Assembly (NCBI GenBank): GCA_029237775.1
Contig: JAQZBR010000006.1
Span: 1-64,000 of the forward strand
Length of the DNA stretch: 64,000 bases
Direction of reading: 5' to 3'
From: Bacteroidota bacterium
GTDB lineage: Bacteria > Bacteroidota > Bacteroidia > 2-12-FULL-35-15
Part shown: one piece after another, positions 605 to 62,274 of the stretch
How positions within the stretch are numbered: the stretch's first letter is position 1
Layout: each line of letters begins with the position of its first letter
Notes under the pieces: generated by a model
Database searches by the model: none
Seen by the model: only the letters and a program-made list of their open reading frames with translations
What the model was told of the DNA's origin: nothing
Made by a program: the position numbers and the translations under genes

Positions 605-1051
605 ATGGAAGTAATTTTAAAAAATGACGTTAAAAACCTTGGATACAAGGATGACGTGGTAACAGTAAAACCGGGCTACGGAAGAAATTTCCTTTTGCCA
701 AAAGGTTTAGCTGTAATGGCAACTGCATCTACAAAGAAAATGCAAGCTGAAACTGCAAAGCAACGTGCTTTTAAAGATCAGAAAATTAAGGCTGCTGCTG
801 AAAAAACTGCTGCTGCTTTAAAAGATATGACTGTAAAAGTTGGAGCGAAAGCTGGTGAGTCCGGAAAGATCTTCGGTTCTATCACTACAGTTCAGTTAGC
901 TGATGCGATCAAAAAATTAGGTTATGAAGTAGACAGAAAGAACATTTCTGTTAACGAAGAGGGTATCAAAAACATCGGTACTTATACTGCTGAAGTTCGT
1001 TTCCACAAAGAAGTTGTAGGAAATGTTACTTTCGAAGTAGTAGCTGAATAA
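605..1051 (+). CDS. rplI: 50S ribosomal protein L9
   Basis: Ribosomal protein L9, 148 residues, the normal length. The N-terminal rRNA-binding domain has the signature MEVIL..DV..LG.K.D.V.VK.GYGRN(F)LLP within residues 1-33. A long Lys/Ala-rich helix (about 40-75) connects it to the C-terminal domain, which begins near the GKIFGS(I)T motif. It ends the ribosomal operon and is followed by a clear intrinsic terminator. Confidence 0.97.
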   Translation: MEVILKNDVKNLGYKDDVVTVKPGYGRNFLLPKGLAVMATASTKKMQAETAKQRAFKDQKIKAAAEKTAAALKDMTVKVGAKAGESGKIFGSITTVQLADAIKKLGYEVDRKNISVNEEGIKNIGTYTAEVRFHKEVVGNVTFEVVAE

Positions 1052-1073
1052 TTTTAATTCAATTTCAGAGAAG

Positions 1074-1104
1074 CCTCATAGCGTATGTTATGAGGTTTTT
1101 TTTT
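1074..1104 (+). terminator. Terminator after rplI
   Basis: A 7-bp stem (CCTCATA at 1074-1080 with TATGAGG at 1089-1095) closes an 8-base loop and is followed directly by nine T residues (1096-1104). It ends the S6-S18-L9 operon. Confidence 0.85.
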
Positions 1105-1120
1105 ATCCTATATTTCTGTA

Positions 1121-1224
1121 GTTAAATGGTTGATCAGTTAATTGAGTTAATTTAGGGCAGGTTACAATTAGCTCTTTTTACACACAACCTTAATTAACCT
1201 AATTAACCAATTACTAATTAACCA
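1121..1224. repeat. Imperfect long hairpin of TTAATT/AATTAACC units
   Basis: Two arms of about 35 bases (1121-1156 and 1189-1224) are imperfect reverse complements. The right arm contains three copies of the unit TAATTAACC, and the best-paired 26 bases match at about 20 positions by eye. The element ends exactly at the start codon of the MazG-like gene, so it would form part of its leader. Similar low-complexity hairpins occur at 8.13, 13.5, 17.3 and 52.0 kb. Confidence 0.55.
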
Positions 1225-1557
1225 ATGCTGACGATAAAACAAGCACAGAAAAAAGTAGATAACTGGATCAAAGATCACGGTGTGCGCTACTTCAATGAAC
1301 TAACGAACATGGCTATCCTTACTGAAGAAGTAGGAGAGGTTGCTCGCATCATTTCCCGTCAGTATGGGGAACAATCATTCAAGAAAAAAGAAAGCGATAA
1401 GGAGCTGGCAGATGAATTGGCAGATGTGATGTTTGTGATTATTTGCCTGGCAAACCAAACAGGTGTGGATCTTACAAAAGCCTTTGAAAAGAATATGGAG
1501 AAGAAAACGAAGCGGGATGATAAAAGGCATAAAGAGAACAAGAAGCTGAAGGTGTAG
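1225..1557 (+). CDS. MazG-like nucleotide pyrophosphohydrolase
   Basis: Predicted all-alpha NTP pyrophosphohydrolase that hydrolyses (d)NTPs to monophosphate and diphosphate, probably as house-cleaning. At 110 residues it is a single-domain protein, as in the short MazG/RS21-C6 type enzymes. The metal-binding pattern is visible: EEVGE at residues 34-38 and E..DE..D in the segment ELADELADV (about 60-68), followed by a Lys-rich tail. It is convergent with a GNAT gene whose stop is 4 bases away. The exact substrate cannot be told from sequence. Confidence 0.85.
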   Translation: MLTIKQAQKKVDNWIKDHGVRYFNELTNMAILTEEVGEVARIISRQYGEQSFKKKESDKELADELADVMFVIICLANQTGVDLTKAFEKNMEKKTKRDDKRHKENKKLKV

Positions 1558-1561
1558 TTTG

Positions 1562-2077
1562 CTATCGTCTTTCTAATTCCCACTTCCAGATCAATCCCTC
1601 GTCAGGGTCATTGATTTCTTCAACTTTTTCAAAGCCACATTTCTGTAAGACCTTTGTTGATGGATTATGTTTTCCAAGAGTATGAGCAATAATTATTTTT
1701 ACTCTATCATCTCTAAAAGCATTATTAATTAATCCCTCTGCCATTTCAGTAGCAAGTCCGCGATTGCGGTATTCTGCTGAAATTTCATAGCCGAGCTCTA
1801 CTGTTCCCGCTATGTTTGGTTTTCCTTTATAACCCCCACTTCCGATAAGTTTATTGTCTTGTTTGTGAATAGGAAAGTATGTCCACCAATTTTTCTCTTC
1901 TTCACTTTCCGATAGTTTGTCGAGTGAATACTTTAAGGCGCTTTCACCAAATTCTGTCCAATTGTCCTGAACAGTAACATCCATTTTTTTTGCGAGTATT
2001 TCATTCCCTTGAATTGCGGCTTTCAAAATTTCTGTGTCGCAGGGGATGAGTTTTAGGTTCTTTGTTTCAATAGTCAT
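1562..2077 (-). CDS. GNAT-family N-acetyltransferase (RimJ/RimL type)
   Basis: 171-residue acetyl-CoA-dependent N-acetyltransferase. The start matches the RimJ/RimL-like pattern (a beta strand with T.NL.LIPC). The acetyl-CoA-binding motif A is visible as LGYEIS.EYRNRGLATEMAEGLI (about residues 92-115), followed by the motif-B pattern NP(S)TKVLQKCGF (about 138-149). Such proteins modify small molecules or N-termini; the substrate is unknown. It stands alone on the minus strand between MazG and a hydrolase gene. Confidence 0.8.
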   Translation of the reverse strand: MTIETKNLKLIPCDTEILKAAIQGNEILAKKMDVTVQDNWTEFGESALKYSLDKLSESEEEKNWWTYFPIHKQDNKLIGSGGYKGKPNIAGTVELGYEISAEYRNRGLATEMAEGLINNAFRDDRVKIIIAHTLGKHNPSTKVLQKCGFEKVEEINDPDEGLIWKWELERR

Positions 2078-2120
2078 TCAATTAATCCTGGTTATTTTCA
2101 GAGTATTTAAGTAATATTCC

Positions 2121-2855
2121 TTACTGTATTCCCCTCATAAACATCAGCAGGGCCAGCCAATATTCATGGTAATTCGGATTACTTTCCTTCCACAATGCCT
2201 TTGAACCATGATCTCCTGCATTAGAGGGAGTGAATTGATTTTTATTCTTTACTTCTTTCACCAATGCCGCAACATCAGCTGCTTCCGATTTTGACGAAGT
2301 AACAAATACGGGTTTGTCTAAAAGCCTGATCGCATCTTTTACATTTAGTTTGCCGGTAAAGTATTCACCCGGACTGAATGCCAGCACCGCTTTTACCTTA
2401 TCAGAACCTGCTGCGATCTTTAGAACGAGTGATGCACTGTAAGAGCTACCCACAAGTATCACTTTCTTATTCGTCTTTTTATAGATATAATCGATTGCGG
2501 CAAGTATATCCTGCTCAGTGTCGAGGTAACCGGTGGTCTTTCTTTTTTTAGCCGCTAAAGCTGCAGTTTCATTGGTGATTCCGTTAACTTCTTTGCCTGA
2601 ACGAAGATCCACTGCCAGGCAATTGTATCCAAATTTCTGAAAGCGGGTTGCAGTGTTAATGTATTCTCCGCGACTGAATCCTGCCTGGTGCAGTAAGATC
2701 ATGTAAGGCATCTTCTCGTCTTCAACGTATTCATCCGCTGTGATCATAAGCCCGTCTTTTGAAGGAAATGTTACTGTTTCCTGTGCATGGATTTTTTTTA
2801 AAGAAAAAACGCCAAAAAAAAGAGACAAAAGGATCAGAGAGATATTCCTGTTCAT
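2121..2855 (-). CDS. Secreted alpha/beta hydrolase
   Basis: 244 residues with an N-terminal signal peptide (hydrophobic residues 5-22, likely cut after HAQ). The alpha/beta-hydrolase fold is supported by the strand-turn LLHQAGFSRGEY (oxyanion region), the nucleophile elbow GSSYSA (Ser in VILVGSSYSAS) and a late His in NAGDHG, the likely catalytic histidine. It resembles dienelactone-hydrolase-like or X-Pro-like esterases of Bacteroidota. The substrate is not identifiable. It is on the same strand as the next upstream secreted protein but 132 bases from its coding end on the track, so operon membership is uncertain. Confidence 0.75.
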   Translation of the reverse strand: MNRNISLILLSLFFGVFSLKKIHAQETVTFPSKDGLMITADEYVEDEKMPYMILLHQAGFSRGEYINTATRFQKFGYNCLAVDLRSGKEVNGITNETAALAAKKRKTTGYLDTEQDILAAIDYIYKKTNKKVILVGSSYSASLVLKIAAGSDKVKAVLAFSPGEYFTGKLNVKDAIRLLDKPVFVTSSKSEAADVAALVKEVKNKNQFTPSNAGDHGSKALWKESNPNYHEYWLALLMFMRGIQ

Positions 2856-2987
2856 AACACCGATAATTTATACGTGTGTGCAATGATAGTGGAAATATTT
2901 ATGCTTTGGAAATTATTTATTTGAATGAAATGAATTCAAAAACCAGATAATCAAAGCATTGGAATCACTTGAATGCCGGGGAACAAA

Positions 2988-4553
2988 TCAGTAGATCAGC
3001 TTCCCGTAAGCGTACCTGTCTCCTCTTTCAAAGTAGAGAATCGCGCCCTTGTTTTCTATTGGTACGATCATATTGTATTCCAGCGGGAAATTATAATGAC
3101 TGCGCATTCGTGACGCACCGTCTATCGGGATCATACTTAATTCAGTATTCTTATAAATGACTTCTTGTTTTATACTTCCGTCAGATGAAATTGTTGCAAG
3201 GGTGACGTTGGCATCACCATAGCCTGTGGCTTTATTGTTTTTCATAGTCAGGCTATTCAATTTAGCTTTATCTGTATTTGCAGGGCTTTCACAATAGATT
3301 AATCTAAGGTTACCATTGTGGGCGATGGCAAGGAAAAAGTTTTTTGTAAAATAGGTGGTTATTTTAAAAAAACGCGGAAATGGTTTTACCCATTTTATTT
3401 CACCTGATGAACTGGTTTGGTATACAACCAAAGCCGATCTGATGTCCTGTTCTGCTATCGTATAAATTTTCCCTTCTGTTTCAATTATAGAGCATATTCT
3501 GTAATTATTGATAATTGACTTTTCTCCTTTCTTAAGGATGTTAATCAATTCTTCTGAAAAATGAACACTGTCCATTTTCTCAGGCTTCAATGTTTTTAAG
3601 TTCAAGGTTTGTGAAAATAATCCGAACAGCGCTGTAAGGTTCAGCCCGTCCTTCTCCCGAACCCTGTTCTTATAAATAATTGAACAATATATTTTATCGC
3701 CTTTACTGATGAAATCGATATCTTCGATCTTATGAATTGTTCGATTGAAATTTAAATCAATTCCAGTGATCTTGTCGGACCGCTGGCTCATTATTCCTAT
3801 TGCAGAGACGGTTTTTTTTTCTGAGTAGTTGTAATTGAAATTAAAAAGTACGTCACCATCGTCATCCGTTTTAAAATTCCAAGCTTCAATATTAGAATCA
3901 GTGAACTGTTTTGGCACAATGATCTTTGATTCGTGGGAAAGCGACTCTGCATCGAGAATTAAGACCATGCACTTTTCAAAATGCGATTCAGTTGTTGTTA
4001 TGGTTTCCGAAGCCGCGATACAGATATGTTTTTTATTATCCGAAATATTGAAATCGTAGTTTATGGTATGCATGCTTGCATCGCCTAATTTAGCCCCCAT
4101 CAGATCCACTCCCATTACCATTTTCGGTGTTTCGATTTTTAAGAGCTCTCTTAGTTCCTTTATAATTCCGTTGGCTGTTATTGTTTGCATGTAAACCGAA
4201 CGTTGATCATTATTGTTAGCATTTCTTTCAAAATGTTCCCTGAAAACTACCGTTTTACCGTGAATAAAATACGCTTCCAGAAAGCTGTCGTCATTATCCT
4301 GTGGAAGAGTAATGTCCACAGAATATTCCAGCGTGAGGTTAAGCTGACTATACTTTTCTATGAAAAAAGATCCCTCCGGACTTGATCTAAGGATATAAAA
4401 AAAATTTTCGTCCTGCCCGAGTAATTTCTCGGCAATAGATCTTTTAGATAATTGCCTTACCTCGCTTAATACGAGTTTAGCCTGCGCCTGCGTTGCCTGA
4501 GAGAAAGCGAGTATGAAGAATAAAAGTGTTGAATAGATAATCCCTTTGATCAT
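2988..4553 (-). CDS. Secreted protein of unknown function (about 521 aa)
   Basis: I do not recognise this protein. Starting at the ATG at 4553 it has a clear signal peptide (MIKGIIYS.. hydrophobic core, likely cleavage after ATQAQA). The body is rich in short beta strands of 10-15 residues with polar turns, as in beta-propeller-like secreted proteins, but there is no catalytic motif I can point to. The longer frame back to 4577 begins with TTG and would place the start inside a TACTTTTG promoter box (4575-4582), so I prefer 4553. It ends within 20 residues of the sequence ERGDRYAYGKLIY with no T9SS sorting domain. Confidence 0.7.
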   Translation of the reverse strand: MIKGIIYSTLLFFILAFSQATQAQAKLVLSEVRQLSKRSIAEKLLGQDENFFYILRSSPEGSFFIEKYSQLNLTLEYSVDITLPQDNDDSFLEAYFIHGKTVVFREHFERNANNNDQRSVYMQTITANGIIKELRELLKIETPKMVMGVDLMGAKLGDASMHTINYDFNISDNKKHICIAASETITTTESHFEKCMVLILDAESLSHESKIIVPKQFTDSNIEAWNFKTDDDGDVLFNFNYNYSEKKTVSAIGIMSQRSDKITGIDLNFNRTIHKIEDIDFISKGDKIYCSIIYKNRVREKDGLNLTALFGLFSQTLNLKTLKPEKMDSVHFSEELINILKKGEKSIINNYRICSIIETEGKIYTIAEQDIRSALVVYQTSSSGEIKWVKPFPRFFKITTYFTKNFFLAIAHNGNLRLIYCESPANTDKAKLNSLTMKNNKATGYGDANVTLATISSDGSIKQEVIYKNTELSMIPIDGASRMRSHYNFPLEYNMIVPIENKGAILYFERGDRYAYGKLIY

Positions 4554-4574
4554 GTGAGTCCGTTTTAATACCGG

Positions 4575-4582
4575 CAAAAGTA
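4575..4582 (-). promoter_or_regulatory. -7 promoter box TACTTTTG
   Basis: On the minus strand this reads TACTTTTG, an exact match to the Bacteroidota housekeeping -7 consensus TAnnTTTG. It lies 21 bases upstream of the ATG at 4553. No good -33 TTG is evident. Confidence 0.4.
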
Positions 4583-4602
4583 GGGAATATGAGTAAAAGA
4601 TC

Positions 4603-5511
4603 TCAGAAACTTTCAGATGATAGTTCCCCGTTGATCATCATTCCTGCTACCGTTCCGGCAGCCACGGCAAAAGAGATTGTTCGTCCTTTACTTGTGTTGT
4701 CGCCTGCAGCATACACACCATACATAGATGTTTTTTTGCATTCGTCAACTTCAATATATCCATCATCTTTGATTTTGCAGCCCAGCTTCTCCGGAATATC
4801 GGAGTGTTGAGTGTGACCCAGCTTGGCATAAATAACAGGTATGCTTAGTTTTGTTTTGTCTTTGAAATAAAGGGATTTCACTTGCCCGCCCTCGTGATCA
4901 ATGCGATCGATTTCATTTTCAATGATCTCGATATTGTGTTTTTTAAGGCGGATCCTTTGTTCATCGCTGAGCTCCGATCTGCCATTTGTTAAAAGGCGGA
5001 TATCCCGGGTCCACTGTGTTAAAACCATACATACATCAAAAGCATTGATGCCATTGCCTAGTACTGCGGTCTGTTTGTCTTTCACTTCGTATCCATGACA
5101 ATAAGGGCAATGTAAAACTGAGATTCCCCATGAAGCGCTCAAACCGGGAATATCGGGTATTACATCTTTCACACCTGTAGCAAATAATAGTTTTTTGGTT
5201 TCATAACGCTCTCCGTTTGCAAGCACCACCTCAAAGCCTTTGCTGATTTGTTTAGCACCATCAGCACGGCCTCCAATAAACTTTACTGTGTCGTATTTTT
5301 TGACATCCGCTTTCGCTTTAGCAATTATATCACATGGTTTGGAGTTATCCCAGGTAAGGAAATTATGGGCGCGGGGAGCTTGTATATTGCAGGGATTATT
5401 ATCATCGATTACCAGAATATTTCTGTTTGCTCTTCCTAAGGCGAGGGCAGCGGATAAACCGGCAAAGCTTCCTCCAATAATGATCGCATCAAAAAGCTGG
5501 TCGTTCTTCAT
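4603..5511 (-). CDS. Thioredoxin-reductase-like FAD/NAD(P) oxidoreductase
   Basis: 302-residue pyridine-nucleotide disulfide oxidoreductase of the thioredoxin reductase type. The FAD-binding Rossmann motif GGSFAGLSAALALGR is at residues 12-26, the redox-active CPYC (in HCPYCHGYE) is around residue 135, the NAD(P)-binding motif is near GNGINA, and the C-terminal FAD motif is YAAGDNT. It reduces a disulfide-bearing partner or acts in a related redox role. No thioredoxin gene is adjacent. Length and spacing match small TrxB-like proteins of Bacteroidota. Confidence 0.85.
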   Translation of the reverse strand: MKNDQLFDAIIIGGSFAGLSAALALGRANRNILVIDDNNPCNIQAPRAHNFLTWDNSKPCDIIAKAKADVKKYDTVKFIGGRADGAKQISKGFEVVLANGERYETKKLLFATGVKDVIPDIPGLSASWGISVLHCPYCHGYEVKDKQTAVLGNGINAFDVCMVLTQWTRDIRLLTNGRSELSDEQRIRLKKHNIEIIENEIDRIDHEGGQVKSLYFKDKTKLSIPVIYAKLGHTQHSDIPEKLGCKIKDDGYIEVDECKKTSMYGVYAAGDNTSKGRTISFAVAAGTVAGMMINGELSSESF

Positions 5512-54065: not shown

Positions 54066-55169
54066 TCAAACCTCCCGCAAACATTCACTAATATTCTTCA
54101 AGCCCTGCGTAAGCTCTGCGTTAGAAGGCCATCCAAAACCTATCCGCATATAATGCGCAGGCATTTCAAACCAGTGGCCCGGCCCGACAAATGTCTGATA
54201 CTTTGAATTGAGTAGAGTGTAAAATTTCTTCATATGTATGTTTTCTCCGTTCACGATGCGCGGGAAGCAGACAACACCGCCCTGCGGAAAGATCATCTCC
54301 ATGCGGGTTTCGATTTTGATCCAGTCGAGGAGGACTGTATGGTTTTTTAGAACATGGTCTTTAATGGAGTTGAAGTAATGATCCTTTTTCAAAAGATACT
54401 GAAAGGCGATCTCTTCATCTATCACCGAGTTGCATAAAAAGATCTGCTCTTTTGCTGCGAGGAATTTTTCGAATAAAGTATCATCCTGTGTAATGAGCCA
54501 ACCGATTCGGATCCCGGGAAGGCCATAAGCTTTTGATACGGAACAAACAGTGATCATGCTCGGGTGTAATGAAGCTGCAATAGGGTAGATTTCCGAGCGG
54601 CTCAGTTCACGGTATGTTTCATCAACTAATAAATAGCAATTATTTTTTGCTGCAAGCTCTGCAAGCTGCATTAATGTATCCTTCGGAATTACCATTCCGG
54701 TGGGATTATGCGGATGTGTGACGCTTATTAATTTTGTGTTTGCTTTTATTTTAGAGCGGATATCCGCAACGGAGATCTCGAAGTTGCTTTCAAAATGCAC
54801 GTCCGAATACGAGATCTCACAACCGATGGCTCTTGGTGTTTCAATATTGGAAGCGTAGTTCGGACGAATCACGATGAGGTGATCTTCTTTTTCCAGTAAG
54901 GTAGTAGCAACAATGAATACCGCAGAGGCAGCGCCTGCTGTTATTAAAATATTGTCCTGACTGATATTCGCATTGCCGTTTGCAATGAGTTCCCGTAATT
55001 CGGGTTTGCCGAGGTGATCCCCGTAACAAAGTTTAAGCTCGTTAATGTCGAGCTTGATGCTGTTGAACACAGTGTCAGAGATGGAGCTTTCGGTAAGGTT
55101 ATATTTTACATTGTCGTATCCCAGCTGTTCCGGGGATTCGATCTCGATAGGCATCCGCTTGTAGTCCAT
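54066..55169 (-). CDS. PLP-dependent aminotransferase, class I/II
   Basis: 367-residue fold-type I aminotransferase. Visible are ITAGAASAVFI, the SVTHPHNPTGMVIP block, the LLVDETY Asp/Tyr pair that contacts PLP, and the catalytic Lys in CSVSKAYGLPGIRIGW (near 215). The C-terminal part includes MRIGFG (substrate-binding Arg). The exact amino acid is not recognisable; family members include histidinol-phosphate and aspartate/aromatic aminotransferases. It is not in an obvious biosynthetic operon. Confidence 0.88.
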   Translation of the reverse strand: MDYKRMPIEIESPEQLGYDNVKYNLTESSISDTVFNSIKLDINELKLCYGDHLGKPELRELIANGNANISQDNILITAGAASAVFIVATTLLEKEDHLIVIRPNYASNIETPRAIGCEISYSDVHFESNFEISVADIRSKIKANTKLISVTHPHNPTGMVIPKDTLMQLAELAAKNNCYLLVDETYRELSRSEIYPIAASLHPSMITVCSVSKAYGLPGIRIGWLITQDDTLFEKFLAAKEQIFLCNSVIDEEIAFQYLLKKDHYFNSIKDHVLKNHTVLLDWIKIETRMEMIFPQGGVVCFPRIVNGENIHMKKFYTLLNSKYQTFVGPGHWFEMPAHYMRIGFGWPSNAELTQGLKNISECLREV

Positions 55170-55250
55170 GCACTAATTTATGATTTATTCCTGAAAAGGT
55201 AGAAGGTAAATGGCAGCATAGGTTGCAGTCCAGTTACACATATAAATTTA

Positions 55251-55784
55251 TTAAAAAAAAGCGTAAGCGCCTCTTATATGCCTGCTTCTGATTCGGATAA
55301 AAGGGAATCTCTTTGAGCGGTAAATACCATATTTCCCTATTGTGGTGATACGTCTTGATTTGAACCTTGGTGCGGGTTCTTCTTTATCTGTAATGACTTC
55401 GACAGGAATTTCATTCTCGACTCTGATATTGGGGATAGAGTCATTGCACTTACCGGTGATCTCACACTTTACTTCAGGACGATAATGCTGAGCATGCAAT
55501 GAGGTTGTTTCCAGACCAAAGTATGCAGCTATTGTAGCGATCCAATACCTTGCTTTTTTGAGTGATGTGAATTCTATGGGGGTAAGATCTTCGGTTTGCT
55601 CTACCCTGAAATTACCGCAGGCAACTCCATCTCTGGTTTTCGCACGGATCTGTTCTATGCTCATATCGGAAAAATCGAAAACTTCATGCTGGCAGCTATC
55701 ACAGAACCTGCCGTTGGCTGATGATTTCATGTGTTCCCATTTCTGCTTACACGTGAATTTCATTTGGATGTGTTGTTCAGGCAT
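55251..55784 (-). CDS. Cys4 N-terminal-domain membrane protein
   Basis: 177 residues. The N-terminal domain (about 1-65) has four cysteines, C12, C28, C31 and C56, in the pattern C...GRFCDSC...(V)ACGNFR, a likely zinc site or small Fe-S site. A hydrophobic stretch (about 80-96, ARYWIATIAAYFG) is one TM helix, and the Arg-rich tail IGKYGIYRSKRFPFIR follows. Bacteroidota carry several such proteins, often with a carboxypeptidase-like domain after the TM; here that part is absent. A broken paralogue lies 20 bases upstream. Function unknown. Confidence 0.7.
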   Translation of the reverse strand: MPEQHIQMKFTCKQKWEHMKSSANGRFCDSCQHEVFDFSDMSIEQIRAKTRDGVACGNFRVEQTEDLTPIEFTSLKKARYWIATIAAYFGLETTSLHAQHYRPEVKCEITGKCNDSIPNIRVENEIPVEVITDKEEPAPRFKSRRITTIGKYGIYRSKRFPFIRIRSRHIRGAYAFF

Positions 55785-55803
55785 GTGCTTCTGTATTTAG
55801 TTA

Positions 55804-56324
55804 TTAAAAATATCCGCTCACGTAATACCTTCTTTTTTTTACAATAAAAGGAAATTTCTTTGTCAGGTAATATCTGCTCTTTCCGATCTTTAATCCGGTT
55901 TTCTTAGGTAAAACATTTGCATTGTTTGTCACAGTCTCTTCAGTAATATCTGTCTTAATTGTATCCTTACAGTTTCAACGCAGTTTCTTCCGGTAATTTC
56001 TGTTCGCACTAATTGACGGCAAGTAGTTTGTGCTTTGGCAGTTTCCAGTACCAGGTATGTTCCAAGTGCCGCAAGCCAGTATCTTGCTTTTTTAAAGATC
56101 CTGAACTCGATCAGTTTGATATCTTCGGTCTGCTCGATCCTGAAATGGCCGCAGACTTTTTCACCTTTTGCTTTTATCGCATGTATCTGTCCGAGGCTCG
56201 TATTTGTAAAATCAAACACTTCATGCTTGCAGCTATCGCAAAAACGCCCATTTGCTGAAGCTTTCATGTCATCCCATTCCTGGTTGCATATGAATTTCAT
56301 TTGGATATGTTTATTTGCCGCCAT
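55804..56324 (-). pseudogene. Paralogue of the Cys4 membrane protein, frameshifted by an 11-bp duplication
   Basis: The N-terminal 108 codons match the downstream paralogue (C13, C29, C32, C58; GRFCDSC; the ARYWLAALGTYL TM stretch). After EITGRNC the frame is lost and ends at 55929 as 131 residues. The original tail is present in another frame down to 55804 (KIGKSRYYLTKKFPFIV...). The break is an exact 11-bp direct duplication with CAGTTTC at 55970-55976 and 55981-55987; removing one 11-bp unit restores a continuous frame that aligns with the paralogue. It could be a real pseudogene, a recent mutation or a sequencing error. Confidence 0.8.
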
Positions 56325-56370
56325 CTTTTAGGAATATTAAGGATTTTGGTTTGATATAACAAACTAAAGC

Positions 56371-56430
56371 TTATTTGATGGGAAGACGGAGATTGATAGT
56401 AAAGGTTGCTCCAGAACGGTTTCCATGTAT
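56371..56430 (-). pseudogene. Remnant of a histidine kinase C-terminus
   Basis: A 19-codon stretch ends in a stop and encodes IHGNRSGATFTINLRLPIK. The GATFTI.LRLP pattern matches the end of HATPase_c domains. An in-frame stop lies just upstream, so this appears to be a leftover fragment of a kinase. Confidence 0.4.
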
Positions 56431-56532
56431 CTATCCATTATAAAGGTGCGTTTCTTACAATTTTCAATGAATCAATTCCATTTTTCTGCTCACTATATAT
56501 TAGTGAGCATTCATTAAGTTGATTAATGACAA

Positions 56533-57555
56533 TTACTTCAATTTCTTCATCCATTTCTCAATAACGAATTTCCAATTTTGATTAGTTGCTTTATAATCCT
56601 CTTTCCCTAAAACTTGCCTAGAAAAACCAATTATTTCAGTGGGCATTTCATCAACTTGATTAGTATATCCGTTTTTCTTTAAATCCTCCGCAATTTCATG
56701 TATATATGGTTTGATGAATTTAATATCTTCTTCCAACTCAGCGAAGGTAATGTCATTCTTAACAGCATCCTCAAAAGTCGTATTCAAATAAAAGCCTTCG
56801 GCCGGTGGCATTTCGGGGAAGTGGAAGTTTAAAAAAGCTAAGAAACTGTCTAAATTAAAATCTTGGGTGACATCGAATTTGTTCTCATTCCTAGTTTTTT
56901 CCGCAATATCTTTTCTGTATTCAGTTATTCCATCTCTTAATTCTTCAAATTGCTCATCTGCCTCTTCGAATTTAGCACTGAGTCGGAATAGTTTTCTTTG
57001 AAAGTTAAAAGGGACTTGAGCATCGCTTTTGTAGTTCAATTTGTGTTCGATTTCTGCCCATGCATGCATTAAGATTGTTCTTATTTGTATTTCCGCCTTG
57101 TAGTTTTGTAGGCCACGATAATTAGGAGTTGCAGTCCAATTGTCATTGATTTTAACTATGTTATGAACCGATCTATATGCGAATTCTTTTAATCCAAGCG
57201 AATCTGATTTGTTTTCCGATTCTAATACATTAAGCTCCTTTTTTATAATGTTTTCGATTTTTTCAATATCTGAGGCATAATAGCAAATTATTCTTATGCC
57301 ACAGATGTCTTCAGTTTCATTAAAGGGGTCTTTATAATTTTTTCGGCCAACTTTTTCAAAATATGATTCAAAATCCTTTACTCTGTGATAAACACTGAGG
57401 TATGGTATCTTTTCAGCTTCCAAAAAGGATTTTAATGCTTCTTCTAAATTTTTGCCCAGCTTAGAATATTGACTTTGTAATCTATTATATTCGTCATTTA
57501 ATTCTTTTTTACTTTTCATATCATATATTATTTTATCTCTATAAGATAGTTTCAT
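56533..57555 (-). CDS. RelA/SpoT-type nucleotide synthetase with extra C-terminal domain
   Basis: 340 residues. The synthetase domain (about 35-180) is complete: HRVK (57-60), EDICGIRI (catalytic-region Asp83), YRSVH (127-131), EIQIRT (155-160) and HAWAEIEHKLNYK (164-176). There is no HD hydrolase domain and no TGS/ACT, so it can make but not degrade its product. Residues 180-340 form an unrecognised helical domain with long charged segments. Its class could be a small alarmone synthetase or a toxSAS (toxic synthetase producing e.g. (p)ppApp or modifying RNA). Neighbouring TIR and ATPase genes favour a defence role; no antitoxin is recognised. Confidence 0.85.
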   Translation of the reverse strand: MKLSYRDKIIYDMKSKKELNDEYNRLQSQYSKLGKNLEEALKSFLEAEKIPYLSVYHRVKDFESYFEKVGRKNYKDPFNETEDICGIRIICYYASDIEKIENIIKKELNVLESENKSDSLGLKEFAYRSVHNIVKINDNWTATPNYRGLQNYKAEIQIRTILMHAWAEIEHKLNYKSDAQVPFNFQRKLFRLSAKFEEADEQFEELRDGITEYRKDIAEKTRNENKFDVTQDFNLDSFLAFLNFHFPEMPPAEGFYLNTTFEDAVKNDITFAELEEDIKFIKPYIHEIAEDLKKNGYTNQVDEMPTEIIGFSRQVLGKEDYKATNQNWKFVIEKWMKKLK

Positions 57556-57804
57556 TATTATTCATTGACACTAACCTGGACTTCACACGGTGAATTATTA
57601 AACTATTCACATTAATTCTAGGTCAATTTCACAATGTTTGGTAAACTCCCTTTTGTTGCTAGTGTTCCATAGTCCATGGTGTATAAGGTATTTTCAAAAT
57701 CTATACTACTCGCAAAATTTATTACCATTTATCATTTTTGTTTCTTTGTAATTAGACTCAATGCGGCATGAATTGGTTGCGAGGTAGTAATAGAAACATT
57801 TACA
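57556..57804. other. Gap between TIR and RelA-like genes with two tiny ORFs
   Basis: 249 bases, A/T-rich. A 27-aa frame (minus, 57732-57815) overlaps the end of the TIR gene by 11 bases. A 36-aa frame (minus, 57618-57728) starts just beyond it after two in-frame stops. Neither has a recognised motif. They are the only candidates for small partner proteins of the RelA-like gene, which otherwise has none. Confidence 0.2.
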
Positions 57805-58893
57805 TTATCTTTCATTTATTATTGTTCTAATTTGGTCACATGCGTCACTCACTGCAGATTGTAAATTTGTATTTGTTGGATCATAGTCCAAGGATGTAAT
57901 TCCCAAAACGTCAGTCATAATTTTAATATCAACTCCTCTTGGTACTATGAAAAACGCTTTGTTCCTTGTATGTCGGCCAAGGAACATCCCGTATTCAAAA
58001 ATCACGTTGTCTCGTGGTATTTTAGAAATCTGCCCTCTGGTAAAAATATTGTCATCTGGTGTAAATACAAAAATGCCATACTCATATTTACCTAACATAT
58101 TCTCAAGTACCTCAATATATGCTTGTCCCGGTCTGTCAAACAAGCCGTCAGCCCACGTGTCCACGTGTGCGTCAAATTTCAATGCAGTTTTAATTTTCCT
58201 TGCAACGTCAAGCCCTTCAGTCGAAGAACCAATAAATATTTTTCTTTTATAGCTCTCGGTTTCTGCACACTCGTTTAGGATTCTACCAGACTTTGAAAGT
58301 AAACAGTCTATAGCATGCATTTGGTGTTCAGAAAATGAATATTGTCCGTTTATAATTTCACGTCTACAATCATCACAGATTGCATTTGGTCGCATGCTTT
58401 TTAGAATGTCTATTTTTTGTTGCATGAAGTCAAACAGGCATCCATTTTTTGAAGGAGTGTCGTGATTGAATTTCTCTTTGAGTATAAATTTCAATATCCC
58501 TCTTGCAAAATAGTATAAGAAATAAGAGATCATTTTTTCTTTTGGGATAATAGTGGTGGCAACGTTGTTTGTTGTCACTATAGATATCCCATTTTCCAAA
58601 TCTGAGTCTGCAAATAAGTTTGTCCAGCCGTTTGCTTTGAGTGGTGAATTAGTATAGAAGAAGATGTAGGGATAAAACCCTTTTAGAGCTTGCTTTGTTT
58701 CATATGCTTTTGGTAAGAACTCTTCACAGTCGATTTCTTCAAAATTCAAAAACTGAAACTTACGGCTTATCTCACTTGGTACTTTTGTAAATAAAAATTC
58801 GCTTTGAATTCCGTTTGCAATCGTAATTGCATTTTCAAGTTCTAAATTGAATTCTGTATTGAAGTTTACTATGTCTACGGGCAGCTTACTCAT
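57805..58893 (-). CDS. TIR-domain NADase-like protein with metzincin-like N-terminal region
   Basis: 362 residues. The C-terminal domain (about 217-345) is a TIR-like nucleotide-binding domain of the CAP12/Pycsar type: KIFIGSSTEGLDVARKI, DTWADGLF, FVFTPDD, RDNVIFEYGMFLGR (putative catalytic Glu300) and VLGITSLDYD. Family members cleave NAD+ in CBASS and Pycsar defence. The N-terminal 215 residues are unusual: FARGILKFILKEKFNHD (125-145) is followed by GCLFDF (151-156) and ICDDC (172-176), which resembles the metzincin/archaemetzincin C-terminal block (C...C..C) without an HEXXH catalytic helix. No cyclase is adjacent, so activation must be different or indirect. Confidence 0.88.
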   Translation of the reverse strand: MSKLPVDIVNFNTEFNLELENAITIANGIQSEFLFTKVPSEISRKFQFLNFEEIDCEEFLPKAYETKQALKGFYPYIFFYTNSPLKANGWTNLFADSDLENGISIVTTNNVATTIIPKEKMISYFLYYFARGILKFILKEKFNHDTPSKNGCLFDFMQQKIDILKSMRPNAICDDCRREIINGQYSFSEHQMHAIDCLLSKSGRILNECAETESYKRKIFIGSSTEGLDVARKIKTALKFDAHVDTWADGLFDRPGQAYIEVLENMLGKYEYGIFVFTPDDNIFTRGQISKIPRDNVIFEYGMFLGRHTRNKAFFIVPRGVDIKIMTDVLGITSLDYDPTNTNLQSAVSDACDQIRTIINER

Positions 58894-59048
58894 ATGTCGC
58901 CATTTTATTTATTGGTAATTATGTTTTGCGATCTAGTGTGCGGTTTTTTATTAAAATTACAGTTACGAACCTATATTTCACATACAATCAAATTTGTTGC
59001 GCAGAATGCTTGCATTTCCCAGACCTCTGTTAGTGGCTGGGCATTTCA

Positions 59049-60581
59049 CTATGGTAATGCCTGTATAAAGCTTCGCATTAAATCTACTGAATCACTTAGT
59101 TGTTGAAATGTATATCTAGTATTATTTGTGTTTTCCGGATGGTGAATTTGGTGTCTAATGTAGTCTGTCAAAATTACATTCTCAACAACAATTGTCACTC
59201 CGTCTTTTTTAAGTCTGTTGTATGGCATAATTGTTTTTCCATTTCTAAAACTTTCCATTTCGCTTTCCAATTCAATGTAGCCATACAATTCGTTGTGGTA
59301 TTCTTCCGTGATTTCGGAAAATGCTAAAAAGTTTACTTCATTCAAAGATGGATATGGCAAACTGTTAGGTAACACATTTTCAATAGTCTTGGTCGTGCTG
59401 TTAGACTTTACAAGTCTTAAGTGTTGAAACTCTAACTCTTTAACCAAGGCAGCGCTATGAGTTGTGATGATGACTTGTGTGTTTGCGATTATTGAGAGAT
59501 CTAAAAATGCTTTAATAAGTTTTCTCTGGTGTTCAGTATGTTGTGACGTTTCCGGCTCTTCAATTGCGTAGATGATGCTTGGGATGTTTGCCGCCACTTT
59601 TCTCCTTTCGGCTTCAGCTCTAAAAAAATTCAAAAGAATAAGTCTTTTTACACCGCTTCCTCTTTTATTGATTGGAATATTCTCGTCACCTGTGATTGAA
59701 ACACTTTTAAAAACATCAGCCCATTTTAAGCTATCTGTTGCTGGAATAACAGGGTTTAAGCTACTTGCAATTTCAGGATTCATTTCCTGAATTTTTGCTA
59801 ACGTTCGTGTTGCAACATCCTGCAACTGGCTTTTAACTTCTATTGCGATTTCATCGAATTTTGCTTTCAATGTCGCGTTATTTAGAATTTGCTTTACAGC
59901 TTCTTTTAACGGGTCTTGTACTTCATCGTCTCCGTCACTATTTTTTCTGTCAGATTGAAACAATGAGTAAAGAGGCAAATATGTTTGCAATTTGTCCCAA
60001 ATGGATTTTGTGTCGCCTTTGCTTACATCAATTTCAGTGGTGGATAATTGAAGGTCAGAATTAAAATGTTGCCAAATTGCCGCCCGCATTACTGCATTGA
60101 TTGTTTGGTTGCTACAAGTAATGGATTTGTCTCTAAGGATTTTTTGCAGATCCGTATTTTTCTTTGGTAAGAGGTCTTTACAATCGTTGTTCGTTGGATG
60201 ATTAGCTTTTACAAAAATCTTTTCCTTTCCTCCGTTTGAATACTTTTTAATTATTTCAAGTTGGTTGCTTGAGTTTAAAAGATATTCGTTTTGTAAGGTT
60301 GTCTGGTTTGTGCTGTCAATAACGATTGTAGTCGGTAATTCTTCAAAGCAAACCGAAATAATAGTTTCGAGGTCGTCTTCAGCAAGGGCTTGCTTATTTA
60401 CATCGTCTTTGTCAAGTTTTATTACGCCTTTACCATCATTGAAAAAAATGTCTAATGCTTCTAAAACAGTAGATTTTCCGATGTCGTTTTTTCCAACAAA
60501 AGCAGTCAAGTCGCCAAATTCAATCTCAACTTCGTCTTTGTAGCTTCTAAAATTTTTTATTTTGATTGTTTTTATTTTCAT
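59049..60581 (-). CDS. OLD-like ATPase with C-terminal RX4H motif
   Basis: 510 residues, an ABC/SMC-type ATPase. Walker A is GKNDIGKST (30-38), the signature-like RGSGVKRL is at 307-314, Walker B is AIEEPE (339-344) and the H-loop is TTHSAA (373-378). Unlike standard OLD proteins, no TOPRIM nuclease motif follows. Instead the last 80 residues contain R476-HQIH-H481 followed by PEN (482-484), a Rx4H motif of HEPN RNases. A fused RNase activated by ATPase movement is therefore inferred. It lies upstream of the TIR gene, 155 bases apart. Confidence 0.85.
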   Translation of the reverse strand: MKIKTIKIKNFRSYKDEVEIEFGDLTAFVGKNDIGKSTVLEALDIFFNDGKGVIKLDKDDVNKQALAEDDLETIISVCFEELPTTIVIDSTNQTTLQNEYLLNSSNQLEIIKKYSNGGKEKIFVKANHPTNNDCKDLLPKKNTDLQKILRDKSITCSNQTINAVMRAAIWQHFNSDLQLSTTEIDVSKGDTKSIWDKLQTYLPLYSLFQSDRKNSDGDDEVQDPLKEAVKQILNNATLKAKFDEIAIEVKSQLQDVATRTLAKIQEMNPEIASSLNPVIPATDSLKWADVFKSVSITGDENIPINKRGSGVKRLILLNFFRAEAERRKVAANIPSIIYAIEEPETSQHTEHQRKLIKAFLDLSIIANTQVIITTHSAALVKELEFQHLRLVKSNSTTKTIENVLPNSLPYPSLNEVNFLAFSEITEEYHNELYGYIELESEMESFRNGKTIMPYNRLKKDGVTIVVENVILTDYIRHQIHHPENTNNTRYTFQQLSDSVDLMRSFIQALP

Positions 60582-60675
60582 CTGTCAATGTTCTTTATGG
60601 GTGTCTGCTTGCTACTAACTCTTGGCTATGCGCCATATATCGATTTTTACTTATATAATTATTTTTTGATGCTCC

Positions 60676-61266
60676 TCACTTCCTCTTATCCTCCCAACTC
60701 CTAAACCACACACTCTTCCCGCTCAGATCTTTTCCTTTGTCCATAACGTCTTCATCAAAGCGGGTTTTTGCACCGGTCTTTTTATAACCGCGCAGGATTA
60801 GATACCAGCTGCAGTTTTTTAAGTCGTGGCTTTTACAGAAGACCATATTCACCGTAGAGTTTTTTACAAAGAGATGCGTGTTCGCTTCCAGGTCGCTGCC
60901 GCCAAATTCATCTTCTTCTGCAAGGATCTTGAATTTAACAGAGGATCTGTTCATGTACTTTTTCTGGAATTCTTTGGAAGAAGGGATAAAGATCTTTTCT
61001 GCTCCGATGATATCCGTTGTATCACCAAAGCGGTGCAGTTCCAGCTTCAGCTGGTCGTATGAGTTCATGTCATTACTGAAGTTGATTGTGCAGGAGAGAT
61101 CGTTAATAGTAAGACAGTTGACGTACATGCCATCTGTAACCTCGGTCTTACCGTTGTTGATGAAGACGCGCGGTTTGTCTTCCTCCATGAACGCATAAAA
61201 GATCACAAGGATGCATGCACCTGAAAGCTGCTTAATAGTTGATGAAAGATCAATGATCCGTTTCAT
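60676..61266 (-). CDS. Exported or membrane-attached protein of unknown function
   Basis: 196 residues. The N-terminus has a hydrophobic stretch (about 11-26, LSGACILVIFYAF) that could be a signal or membrane anchor. The remainder has beta-rich segments (VFINNGKTEVTDGMYVN, WYLILRGYKKTGA) and ends with charged residues. I recognise no family. It is on the same strand as the ATPase gene (95 bases upstream) but its content looks unrelated to defence. Confidence 0.45.
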   Translation of the reverse strand: MKRIIDLSSTIKQLSGACILVIFYAFMEEDKPRVFINNGKTEVTDGMYVNCLTINDLSCTINFSNDMNSYDQLKLELHRFGDTTDIIGAEKIFIPSSKEFQKKYMNRSSVKFKILAEEDEFGGSDLEANTHLFVKNSTVNMVFCKSHDLKNCSWYLILRGYKKTGAKTRFDEDVMDKGKDLSGKSVWFRSWEDKRK

Positions 61267-61614
61267 GAATTATTTAATAATAGATGTCACAGGAAATTAC
61301 CTGAAACAAATAGATCCGATAAAAAAATATAAGCTAACGCAAATGACCACTGATGGTATTCGCTTTCGAGAGGAGTAGATAACTAAAGCAAAAACAATAA
61401 GTGAATTATGTTCTGAGGCAAATGTAGCAAAGTTTCGGAAAGAGGCAAATTTTATTTTTTACCACTAAGGCGGAAAAGACTCAGTTTTACCACGAAGGCG
61501 CAAAGGCGCGAAGTGGGGAGTTACTAAGGCACCAGGGAACAAAGAAGGGCGCGAAGGGTATCGGAGTCATAAAAGCCCCTCTCCGAAGGGGAGGGGCTGG
61601 GCTGAGGTGTTATT
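61267..61614. other. Gene-free 348-base stretch with hairpin repeats
   Basis: No ORF is supportable. It contains two phrases of the type ACCACTAAGGCGG... and ACCACGAAGGCGCAAAGGCGCG, low-complexity G-rich sequence, and one clear hairpin (next entry). Confidence 0.5.
61574..61598. repeat. GC-rich hairpin, possible terminator or intergenic repeat
   Basis: An 11-bp stem AGCCCCTCTCC (61574-61584) pairs with GGGGAGGGGCT (61588-61598) around loop GAA, with one G-T pair. It lies 17 bases from the stop of the carbonic anhydrase gene. On that minus strand it is followed by an A/T-rich rather than a pure T-tract, so termination is only likely. Confidence 0.55.
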
Positions 61615-62274
61615 CTACTTGACTTTAACCGTTTCTATTTCATTATCCAAATGATAAACTGCATGCAGATCCTCCGGACTCGTAGCGCTTACTTTAAGAT
61701 CATTGATCACACCATCTTTGATATCATACACCCAGCCATGGATATGCAATGACTGTTTCTTTTTCCACGCATTCTGAACGATGGATGATTTACCAAGATC
61801 ACGTACCTGTTCGGTGACATTGAGCTCGACAAATCTTCTTGCTCTTGTATTGGTGTCGCTGATAGAGTCAAGCTCCTTGTGGTGATAACGATAAACGTCC
61901 TTGATATGACGCAGCCAGTTGTCGATGAGGCCGTATTGCTTGTTGCCCATAGCCGCCATCACACCGCCACATTCATAATGTCCGCAGACAATGATGTGCT
62001 TTACTTTTAACACTTCAACTGCATAGGAAAGAACGCTGAGCAGATTCATGTCGCTGTGCACCACCATGTTTGCGATGTTACGGTGAACAAATAATTCACC
62101 GGGCTTTGCACCTGTTATGACTTCGGCTGGTACACGGCTGTCAGAACAACCGATCCATAGATAGTCAGGACTTTGCCCGTTGGCCAGATCATTGAAAAAA
62201 TCAGGGTCATTATTTTTTTTCCGGATCGCCCAGCTCTTATTGTTTTCAAGAAGTTTGCTTATTGATTTTTCCAT
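61615..62274 (-). CDS. can: Beta-class carbonic anhydrase
   Basis: 219-residue zinc enzyme interconverting CO2 and bicarbonate. The zinc ligands are C43 (with D45 and R47 of the CSDSR motif), H99 and C102 (in CGHYECGG). Length and spacing fit the E. coli Can type. It is downstream of a second, different beta carbonic anhydrase and a SulP transporter on the same strand. Confidence 0.95.

What the first reader, a model, noticed from the sequence alone, without database searches (positions are those of the whole stretch)
56533..60581. Three-gene defence-like cluster: RelA/SpoT synthetase, TIR protein, OLD-like ATPase
Seen in sequence: three consecutive minus-strand genes, each with a hallmark of a known immune effector (alarmone-type synthetase without hydrolase, TIR domain with FEYGMF Glu, ATPase with RX4H motif). 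Known: each class appears in abortive-infection systems. Inference: they act together. The gaps of 155 and 249 bases make a single transcript likely but not certain, and none of the partners typical for TIR effectors (cyclase, STING) is present.
Basis: partly seen in the sequence, partly recalled or inferred. Interest (0 to 1): 0.72.

Follow-up and report, generated by a model that had tools for sequence, protein, structure and literature searches.

The report
Three defence genes, one relic cassette
Three neighbouring genes that look like one virus-defence system are more likely three independent single-gene defences gathered in one insertion, with the first two joined by a worn remnant of the gene-swapping machinery (an integron) that the same bacterium seems to carry elsewhere.

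Summary
Confirmed: three minus-strand genes at 56533-60581 encode a RelA/SpoT synthetase-only protein, a CAP12/PycTIR-type TIR protein and an OLD/Rad50-like ATPase with an invariant RX4H motif. That they act together is not supported: 0 of 79 ATPase-relative loci and 0 of 25 further loci around relatives of the three hold two of the families. The ATPase is a mobile solo gene: in some Bacteroidota it lies in rows of attC sites, elsewhere beside or inside R-M operons. A covariance model of Bacteroidota attC sites gives one hit in the window, in the 155-base ATPase-TIR gap (58912-59041; 27.4 bits, E 0.0023, decayed). Of 12 whole-genome hits below E 0.01, the other 11 form rows near the starts of three contigs. 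A sister genome has about 0.4 kb where the window has 6.4 kb. Best reading: an inserted remnant of a cassette array carrying independent single-gene defence candidates; the RelA gene shows no cassette sign. In passing: the model hits 73 of 148 Bacteroidota species, and 15 of 15 recombinases aligned, 12 of them near attC sites, lack about 40 residues found in a canonical integron integrase.

The parts
59049..60581 (-). AAA_15 / OLD-Rad50-type ABC ATPase, 510 aa, with an invariant C-terminal R476-X4-H481 motif
   Evidence: Pfam AAA_15 E 3.3e-86; model matches SMC, Rad50, OLD, GajA and PtuA heads over about residues 1-430; motif conservation
60607..60619 (-). possible cassette 5' end, GTTAGTAGCAAGC; pairs with GCCACTAAC after the stop at 8 of 9 positions
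   Evidence: seen in the sequence; the test of such matching ends over 66 loci was weak
58912..59041 (-). decayed attC-like site between the ATPase and TIR genes (7 bases after the ATPase stop, 18 bases before the TIR start)
   Evidence: model R1: 27.4 bits, E 0.0023 over 1.36 Mb; full-model alignment with several broken pairs and a lost GTT; the only one of 12 genome hits below E 0.01 outside the rows on contigs C1-C3
57805..58893 (-). TIR protein, 362 aa: rare N-terminal domain (1-211) plus CAP12/PCTIR-type TIR domain (218-338)
   Evidence: PF10137 E 1.8e-26; Cap12 and PycTIR are its nearest solved relatives; N-terminal domain in 0 of 295 other Bacteroidota genomes
56533..57555 (-). RelA/SpoT synthetase-only protein, 340 aa
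   Evidence: PF04607 E 1.9e-25; YjbM-type synthetases are nearest solved relatives; phage family phrog_9640 E 7.9e-55
56487..56509 (.). palindrome after the RelA gene (9-base arms, no T run)
   Evidence: seen in the sequence
55170..61614 (.). stretch between the aminotransferase and carbonic anhydrase genes, 6.4 kb here against about 0.4 kb in sister genome G302 (L181)

Best explanation
The cluster is a small insertion holding three independent single-gene defence candidates, not one three-part system. The ATPase gene most likely arrived as an integron-type gene cassette; its worn attC site still lies between it and the TIR gene, which starts 18 bases further on, where the next cassette's gene would start. 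The RelA gene follows without a detectable attC, so its route is open. Shown by computation: domains, conserved motifs, no co-occurrence in the loci searched, the attC remnant, a short site in one sister genome. Inferred, not shown: (1) the ATPase works as a Rad50/OLD-type dimer that on sensing infection switches on a C-terminal metal-independent RNase (R476-X4-H481) and stops translation, as PrrC/RloC do; (2) the TIR domain destroys NAD+ once the N-terminal domain senses a trigger; (3) the RelA-type protein makes an alarmone, or pyrophosphorylates a nucleotide or tRNA, and halts growth. Each would act alone.
For: No co-occurrence: 0 of 79, 0 of 25. ATPase relatives up to 88% identical in other orders while the best other genus match is 49%: horizontal transfer. 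attC directly after the ATPase gene in 7 of 67 ATPase loci scanned with R1 (L027, L028, L031, L038, L039, L061, L064); five of these seven sites trained the model, L028 and L061 did not. L039 has seven attC sites on one 9.2-kb contig with the ATPase gene among them. Window site and its genome-wide rarity. 18 of 19 stem pairs of the 11 training sites show compensatory changes. Cap12-like TIR relatives beside attC sites in 2 of 10 loci (L192, L193). ATPase relatives next to hsdS-like genes in 8 and hsdR-like genes in 6 of 77 loci (Pfam confirmed for L047 and L088). RelA relatives as lone cargo in phage- and plasmid-borne settings. Low G+C.
Against: The window attC is weak and structurally decayed. 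The matching-ends test was weak: 6 of 66 loci reach 9 against 2.65% of swapped pairs, mean 6.17 against 5.95. RelA shows no cassette sign and no attC follows TIR or RelA. 60 of 67 ATPase loci had no attC right after the gene. Some contigs are short, so co-occurrence could be missed, and most plasmid and phage records with RelA or TIR hits were not opened. The HEPN fold was not confirmed. Function was not measured.
Confidence: 0.7

Rival explanations
1. One three-component defence operon: the ATPase senses infection and the TIR and RelA proteins are its effectors, on one transcript.
For: Same strand, consecutive, short gaps, shared low G+C. A promoter-like match to a recalled Bacteroidota consensus lies upstream of the gene before them, at 61419-61449, so one transcript is possible.
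Against: No co-occurrence in 79 plus 25 loci; an attC-like site between the first two genes; each family is found with other neighbours.
Confidence: 0.07
2. Three independent genes in a defence island that arrived by some other route; the attC-like hit is a chance or irrelevant match.
For: The hit is weak (27.4 bits) with broken pairs; no attC near TIR-RelA; most ATPase relatives have no attC beside them.
Against: The hit falls in the one gap where a cassette model predicts it, in the predicted orientation and spacing, and only 12 hits below E 0.01 exist in 4.08 Mb; close ATPase relatives have strong attC sites at the same place.
Confidence: 0.18
3. Not defence: DNA-repair-like ATPase, signalling TIR and stress alarmone synthetase acquired for other uses.
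For: The ATPase head also resembles Rad50 and SMC heads, and the RelA protein's nearest solved relatives are YjbM-type synthetases.
Against: ATPase relatives lie in or beside type I, II and III R-M genes; the TIR domain is of the Cap12/PycTIR immune family; RelA relatives are phage and plasmid cargo.
Confidence: 0.05

Closest known systems
PrrC / RloC and other ABC-HEPN proteins (PMC3710099, passages seen)
   Same: ABC-type ATPase head with a C-terminal module bearing RX4H; some relatives sit inside type I R-M operons, as PrrC does.
   Different: The C-terminal module found no Pfam family and no clear solved fold; RNase activity is unproven; no R-M genes were identified beside the window copy.
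OLD nucleases, GajA of Gabija, PtuA of Septu and retrons, AriA of PARIS
   Same: The same kind of ATPase head; the best PADLOC match is AriA (252 bits).
   Different: No TOPRIM domain and no GajB, PtuB or AriB partner found among the genes scanned.
Cap12 (CBASS TIR-STING) and PycTIR (Pycsar)
   Same: TIR domain of PF10137 with the aligned glutamate.
   Different: No STING domain found and no cyclase or CD-NTase among the genes scanned; an unrelated N-terminal domain instead.
Small alarmone synthetases (YjbM/RelQ type); prophage RelA/SpoT proteins and toxSAS toxins (recalled)
   Same: Synthetase domain without hydrolase; close relatives are phage cargo.
   Different: An extra C-terminal part of about 120 residues without a family match above cut-off; no recognised antitoxin gene next to it.
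Integron gene cassettes and attC arrays (CALIN, PMC9024848)
   Same: Folded attC sites, about one gene per site, all in one direction, a tyrosine recombinase at the head where a head was seen.
   Different: The 15 Bacteroidota-type recombinases aligned are 39-47 residues shorter than a canonical IntI over the aligned span; for two of them the gap was shown to lie in the IntI-specific block.

Membership tests
OLD nuclease (ATPase) | OLD/Rad50-type ATPase head | tested here: met
   AAA_15 E 3.3e-86; VIA-align Z 18.7 to an OLD nuclease and 19.1 to GajA
OLD nuclease (ATPase) | C-terminal TOPRIM nuclease domain | tested here: not met
   no TOPRIM family at E up to 1; the C-terminus is the RX4H module
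PARIS | AriB nuclease next to AriA | tested here: not met
   none of the other two genes and three flanking genes scanned matches AriB in PADLOC or DUF4435 in Pfam
Gabija | GajB helicase partner and GajA TOPRIM | tested here: not met
   neither found among the six proteins scanned
ABC-HEPN (PrrC/RloC-like) | RX4-6H motif C-terminal to an ABC ATPase | tested here: met
   R476-X4-H481 in 44 of 44 C-terminal sequences aligned
ABC-HEPN (PrrC/RloC-like) | HEPN fold | tested here: inconclusive
   model pLDDT 91; best VIA-align Z 2.7, a Las1 chain at 2.2; no Foldseek hit below E 1
ABC-HEPN (PrrC/RloC-like) | RNase activity | not testable with these tools
   needs an assay
CBASS Cap12 | PF10137 TIR domain | tested here: met
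   E 1.8e-26
CBASS Cap12 | STING domain and CD-NTase neighbour | tested here: not met
   no such family in the six proteins scanned
Pycsar PycTIR | pyrimidine cyclase neighbour | tested here: not met
   no cyclase family in the six proteins scanned
Small alarmone synthetase | RelA/SpoT synthetase domain without hydrolase | tested here: met
   PF04607 alone above its cut-off
toxSAS toxin-antitoxin | adjacent or fused antitoxin | tested here: inconclusive
   only ORFs of 20-38 aa in the gaps beside the RelA gene; the C-terminal part has no family match above cut-off
Integron gene cassette (ATPase gene) | relatives of the gene followed directly by attC | tested here: met
   7 of 67 ATPase loci scanned, five of the seven sites in the training set
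Integron gene cassette (ATPase gene) | the window copy has its own attC | tested here: inconclusive
   decayed site, 27.4 bits
Integron gene cassette (TIR and RelA genes) | attC after the gene | tested here: not met
   no hit better than E 1.4 elsewhere in 55100-61700 with filters off
Integron (canonical), own genome and genus | IntI integrase over the family cut-off, with the IntI-specific block | tested here: not met
   0 of 36 genus genomes over the TIGR02249 cut-off; the own recombinase lacks the block but exceeds the NF040815 cut-off

The most novel reading that the evidence does not exclude
Bacteroidota carry a widespread, overlooked lineage of integrons: arrays of folded attC cassettes headed by a XerA-like tyrosine recombinase that lacks the IntI-specific block yet moves such cassettes. 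This lineage circulates single-gene defences such as the ATPase-RX4H gene and Cap12-like TIR genes, and the window cluster is a remnant of such an array dropped into the chromosome.
Probability: 0.5. Interest if true: 0.78.

Novelty: new variant of a known kind. Interest (0 to 1): 0.55.

Why it matters
It replaces a tempting three-part immune system by three solo genes and shows the likely route by which one of them travels. A gene gap that reads like an operon spacer can be a recombination-site remnant. If the by-product holds, integron-type arrays in Bacteroidota are far commoner than surveys requiring a canonical IntI report, and moving cassettes would not always need the IntI-specific domain, which can be tested directly.

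Tried and rejected
Three-gene system: rejected on co-occurrence. OLD, PARIS, Gabija, CBASS and Pycsar membership: rejected because a defining domain or partner was not found.

HEPN fold of the C-terminal module: good model but no convincing match (Foldseek best E 1.2; VIA-align best Z 2.7, with Las1 at 2.2 and retron PtuA at 2.4 and 2.1 among nine rows).

First attC scans: a gapless hairpin rule found a site in 1 of 28 loci. A duplex rule gave L031 and L039 0 of 60 shuffles as good, L038 1, L027 3 and L028 9, but also L046 1 and L047 0 without the end motif. Bulk scans were little above shuffles (14 against 8; 90 against 57.7), so only the strongest, motif-bearing sites seeded the model. The matching-ends test was weak. 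Viral-contig scans with the ATPase and TIR proteins confirmed no relatives; with RelA, one. The TIR N-terminal domain had no match in phages. No integron integrase over cut-off in the genus.

Unexplained: 18 of 20 bases at 58949-58930, inside the attC remnant, recur in the sister genome's short site before the aminotransferase (E 0.016 among many short hits).

Rows dropped: one search used 43, and one search used 33, of 79 ATPase loci; one search used 65 loci plus the window; one search looked at 77 loci; one search scanned 67 of the 79 ATPase loci. One search used 10 of the 16 other genomes with a TIR hit and all 9 other genomes with a RelA hit (E 1e-20).

Full report
What is there. Three minus-strand genes lie at 56533-60581 with gaps of 249 and 155 bases. 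P0001 is a RelA/SpoT synthetase-only protein (340 aa; E 1.9e-25; nearest solved relatives are GTP pyrophosphokinases such as YjbM). P0002 is a TIR protein (362 aa; PF10137 E 1.8e-26 at 218-338; Cap12 and PycTIR are the nearest solved relatives). P0003 is a 510-aa AAA_15 ATPase (E 3.3e-86). In its full-length model (mean pLDDT 83.5) about residues 1-430 match SMC, Rad50, OLD, GajA and PtuA heads. Its last 112 residues model well alone (pLDDT 91) but match no solved fold clearly. In 44 aligned C-termini (43 of the 79 loci plus the window) EYHNELY and R476, H480, H481 are invariant.

Do they belong together? No sign of it. 79 loci encode ATPase relatives, with best-segment identities from 88% down to 36%. 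tblastn of the TIR and RelA proteins against all 79 gave no hit at E 1e-3 and one weak RelA-like hit (E 0.058, L047). Flanks were up to 8 kb, but several contigs are short. Of the 40 plasmid and 29 phage records with RelA hits and 34 plasmid records with TIR hits I opened only four in all.

Each gene alone. The ATPase family is up to 88% identical in other orders, yet the best other match among 36 genus genomes is 49%, so it moves horizontally. Of 77 loci checked for neighbours, eight share an hsdS-like neighbour and six an hsdR-like one (BLAST clusters); Pfam confirmed Methylase_S for L047 and L088 and HSDR_N for L088. Other neighbours tested include type II and type III R-M genes. RelA relatives are lone cargo in a Vibrio filamentous phage, a Bacteroides plasmid with phage genes and a 3.5-kb Klebsiella plasmid, and lie near a terminase-like ORF (my reading) in a viral contig. 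The TIR N-terminal domain was found in 0 of 295 other Bacteroidota genomes and on one Haliscomenobacter plasmid, joined to a different C-terminus.

The insertion. In sister genome G302 (L181) the carbonic anhydrase and aminotransferase genes are about 0.4 kb apart; in the window 6.4 kb lie between them. L181 was the only one of eight genus stretches in which the aminotransferase was found, so the state is known from one relative. The three genes have G+C 0.319-0.353, seven others measured 0.414-0.438.

The cassette. In the closest relatives DNA similarity starts about 40 bases before the ATPase gene and ends about 10-20 bases after it. After the stop several relatives read like GCCAGCnnnnAAC. 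L027, L031, L038, L039 and L064, and more weakly L028, continue into a long hairpin ending in GTT. Eleven sites, two of them from this genome, gave a consensus stem of 19 pairs, 18 with compensatory changes, and model R1. Over the window and 92 loci (1.36 Mb) R1 gave 35 hits up to E 1; one lies in the window, at 58912-59041, inside the 155-base gap (27.4 bits, E 0.0023). Its alignment shows several non-standard pairs and a lost GTT, so it is a decayed site. With filters off no other hit in 55100-61700 is better than E 1.4. In the whole genome 12 hits fall below E 0.01: eleven near the starts of contigs C1, C2 and C3, most of them after an ORF, and this gap. In L039 the ATPase gene lies among seven attC sites on a 9.2-kb contig; two of the seven were in the training set. 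Seven of 67 ATPase loci scanned have attC right after the gene; five of these sites trained the model, L028 and L061 did not. TIR relatives in L192 and L193 lie beside attC sites, 2 of 10 TIR-domain loci; the L193 site was in the training set.

Against this reading. The window site is weak. 60 of 67 ATPase loci have no attC after the gene. The matching-ends test over 66 loci was mild (6 at 9 or more against 2.65% of swapped pairs; 17 at 7 or more, 26%, against 27%). RelA has no cassette sign. The model's E-values are rough. Nothing here measures function.

By-product. R1 hits 33 of 36 genomes of the genus at E 0.001 and 73 of 148 Bacteroidota species (own included), in 48 of 83 genera, at E 1e-6. 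G057, held as one contig, has 20 sites, all on one strand, over 37 kb, and a recombinase about 1.5 kb beyond the first, on the same strand. Of 14 genomes chosen for strong arrays, six have a recombinase at the array head (same strand in five, divergent in G007); in eight none was found in the stretch taken. Of nine regions chosen around TIGR02249-like recombinases or holding one (L064, L221-L223, L226-L230), six have attC sites near it and three (L222, L223, L230) do not. Comparing the printed tables, both cut, at least 10 of 36 genus genomes have such a recombinase and an attC on one contig. The 15 recombinases aligned (these nine and the six heads) span 39-47 fewer residues than a canonical IntI; for two of them the gap was shown to lie in the block present in both canonical integrases aligned. 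The same two exceed NCBI's NF040815 cut-off ('site-specific tyrosine recombinase/integron integrase') and fall below the integron-integrase one. Canonical integrases over cut-off occurred in 2 of 16 ATPase-bearing genomes, those of L042 and L082.

Literature, passages only. IntegronFinder 2.0 reports In0 in Bacteroidetes earlier and then a complete integron in Salinibacter (PMC9024848). PMC9668308 says integrons have been detected in Bacteroidota among other phyla and calls the IntI-specific domain necessary. [quoted passage not shown] PMC2426708 found intI genes in the Bacteroidetes/Chlorobi group, selecting for the additional domain. My searches listed no paper whose title or abstract start describes such arrays; most listed papers I did not open. 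R1 was not run on whole genomes outside Bacteroidota; the 75 Bacteroidota genomes without a hit bound its false positives only loosely.

Mechanism. ABC-HEPN proteins are known from PrrC and RloC, where an ATPase head controls a C-terminal RNase and prrC lies in an R-M locus (PMC3710099, passages). The window ATPase shares architecture and motif; its fold and activity are not shown. toxSAS, prophage RelA/SpoT defence proteins, the attC core consensus and the Bacteroidota promoter consensus are recalled, not from a call.

Noticed in passing
L221 (G000:C3:1-18000) 1018-5477; L242 (G000:C2:1-14000) 789-3630; L241 (G000:C1:1-14000) 772-2260: Rows of attC sites near the starts of three contigs of the window's own genome, eleven below E 0.01, with a XerA-like tyrosine recombinase at L221:4353-5477.
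   Followed up: partly
e.g. G057:C1:107735-147612: Integron-type attC arrays are common in Bacteroidota (73 of 148 species sampled); where a head was seen the recombinase is about 40 residues shorter than a canonical IntI.
   Followed up: partly
L049, L083, L084, L085, L088, L100: The ATPase gene lies between hsdS-like and hsdR-like genes, as prrC does; Pfam confirmed for L088 only.
   Followed up: partly
window 57805-58893, residues 1-211; L116:6001-7251: Rare N-terminal domain shared (32% identity) with a Haliscomenobacter plasmid protein that has a different C-terminus: a possible exchangeable sensor.
   Followed up: partly
L192 and L193: Cap12-like TIR genes beside attC sites in two other Bacteroidota genomes.
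   Followed up: partly
window 58930-58949 and L181:5432-5451: 20 bases of the attC remnant recur at 18 of 20 in the sister genome's short site (E 0.016).
   Followed up: no
window 55251-55784 and 55929-56324: Two tandem genes of one small-protein family (55% identity) without a family match above cut-off; matches in 15 of 36 genus genomes, own included.
   Followed up: no
window 61419-61449: Perfect match to a recalled Bacteroidota promoter pattern (TTTG-N19-TAnnTTTG) upstream of the 60676-61266 gene; not tested against chance.
   Followed up: no
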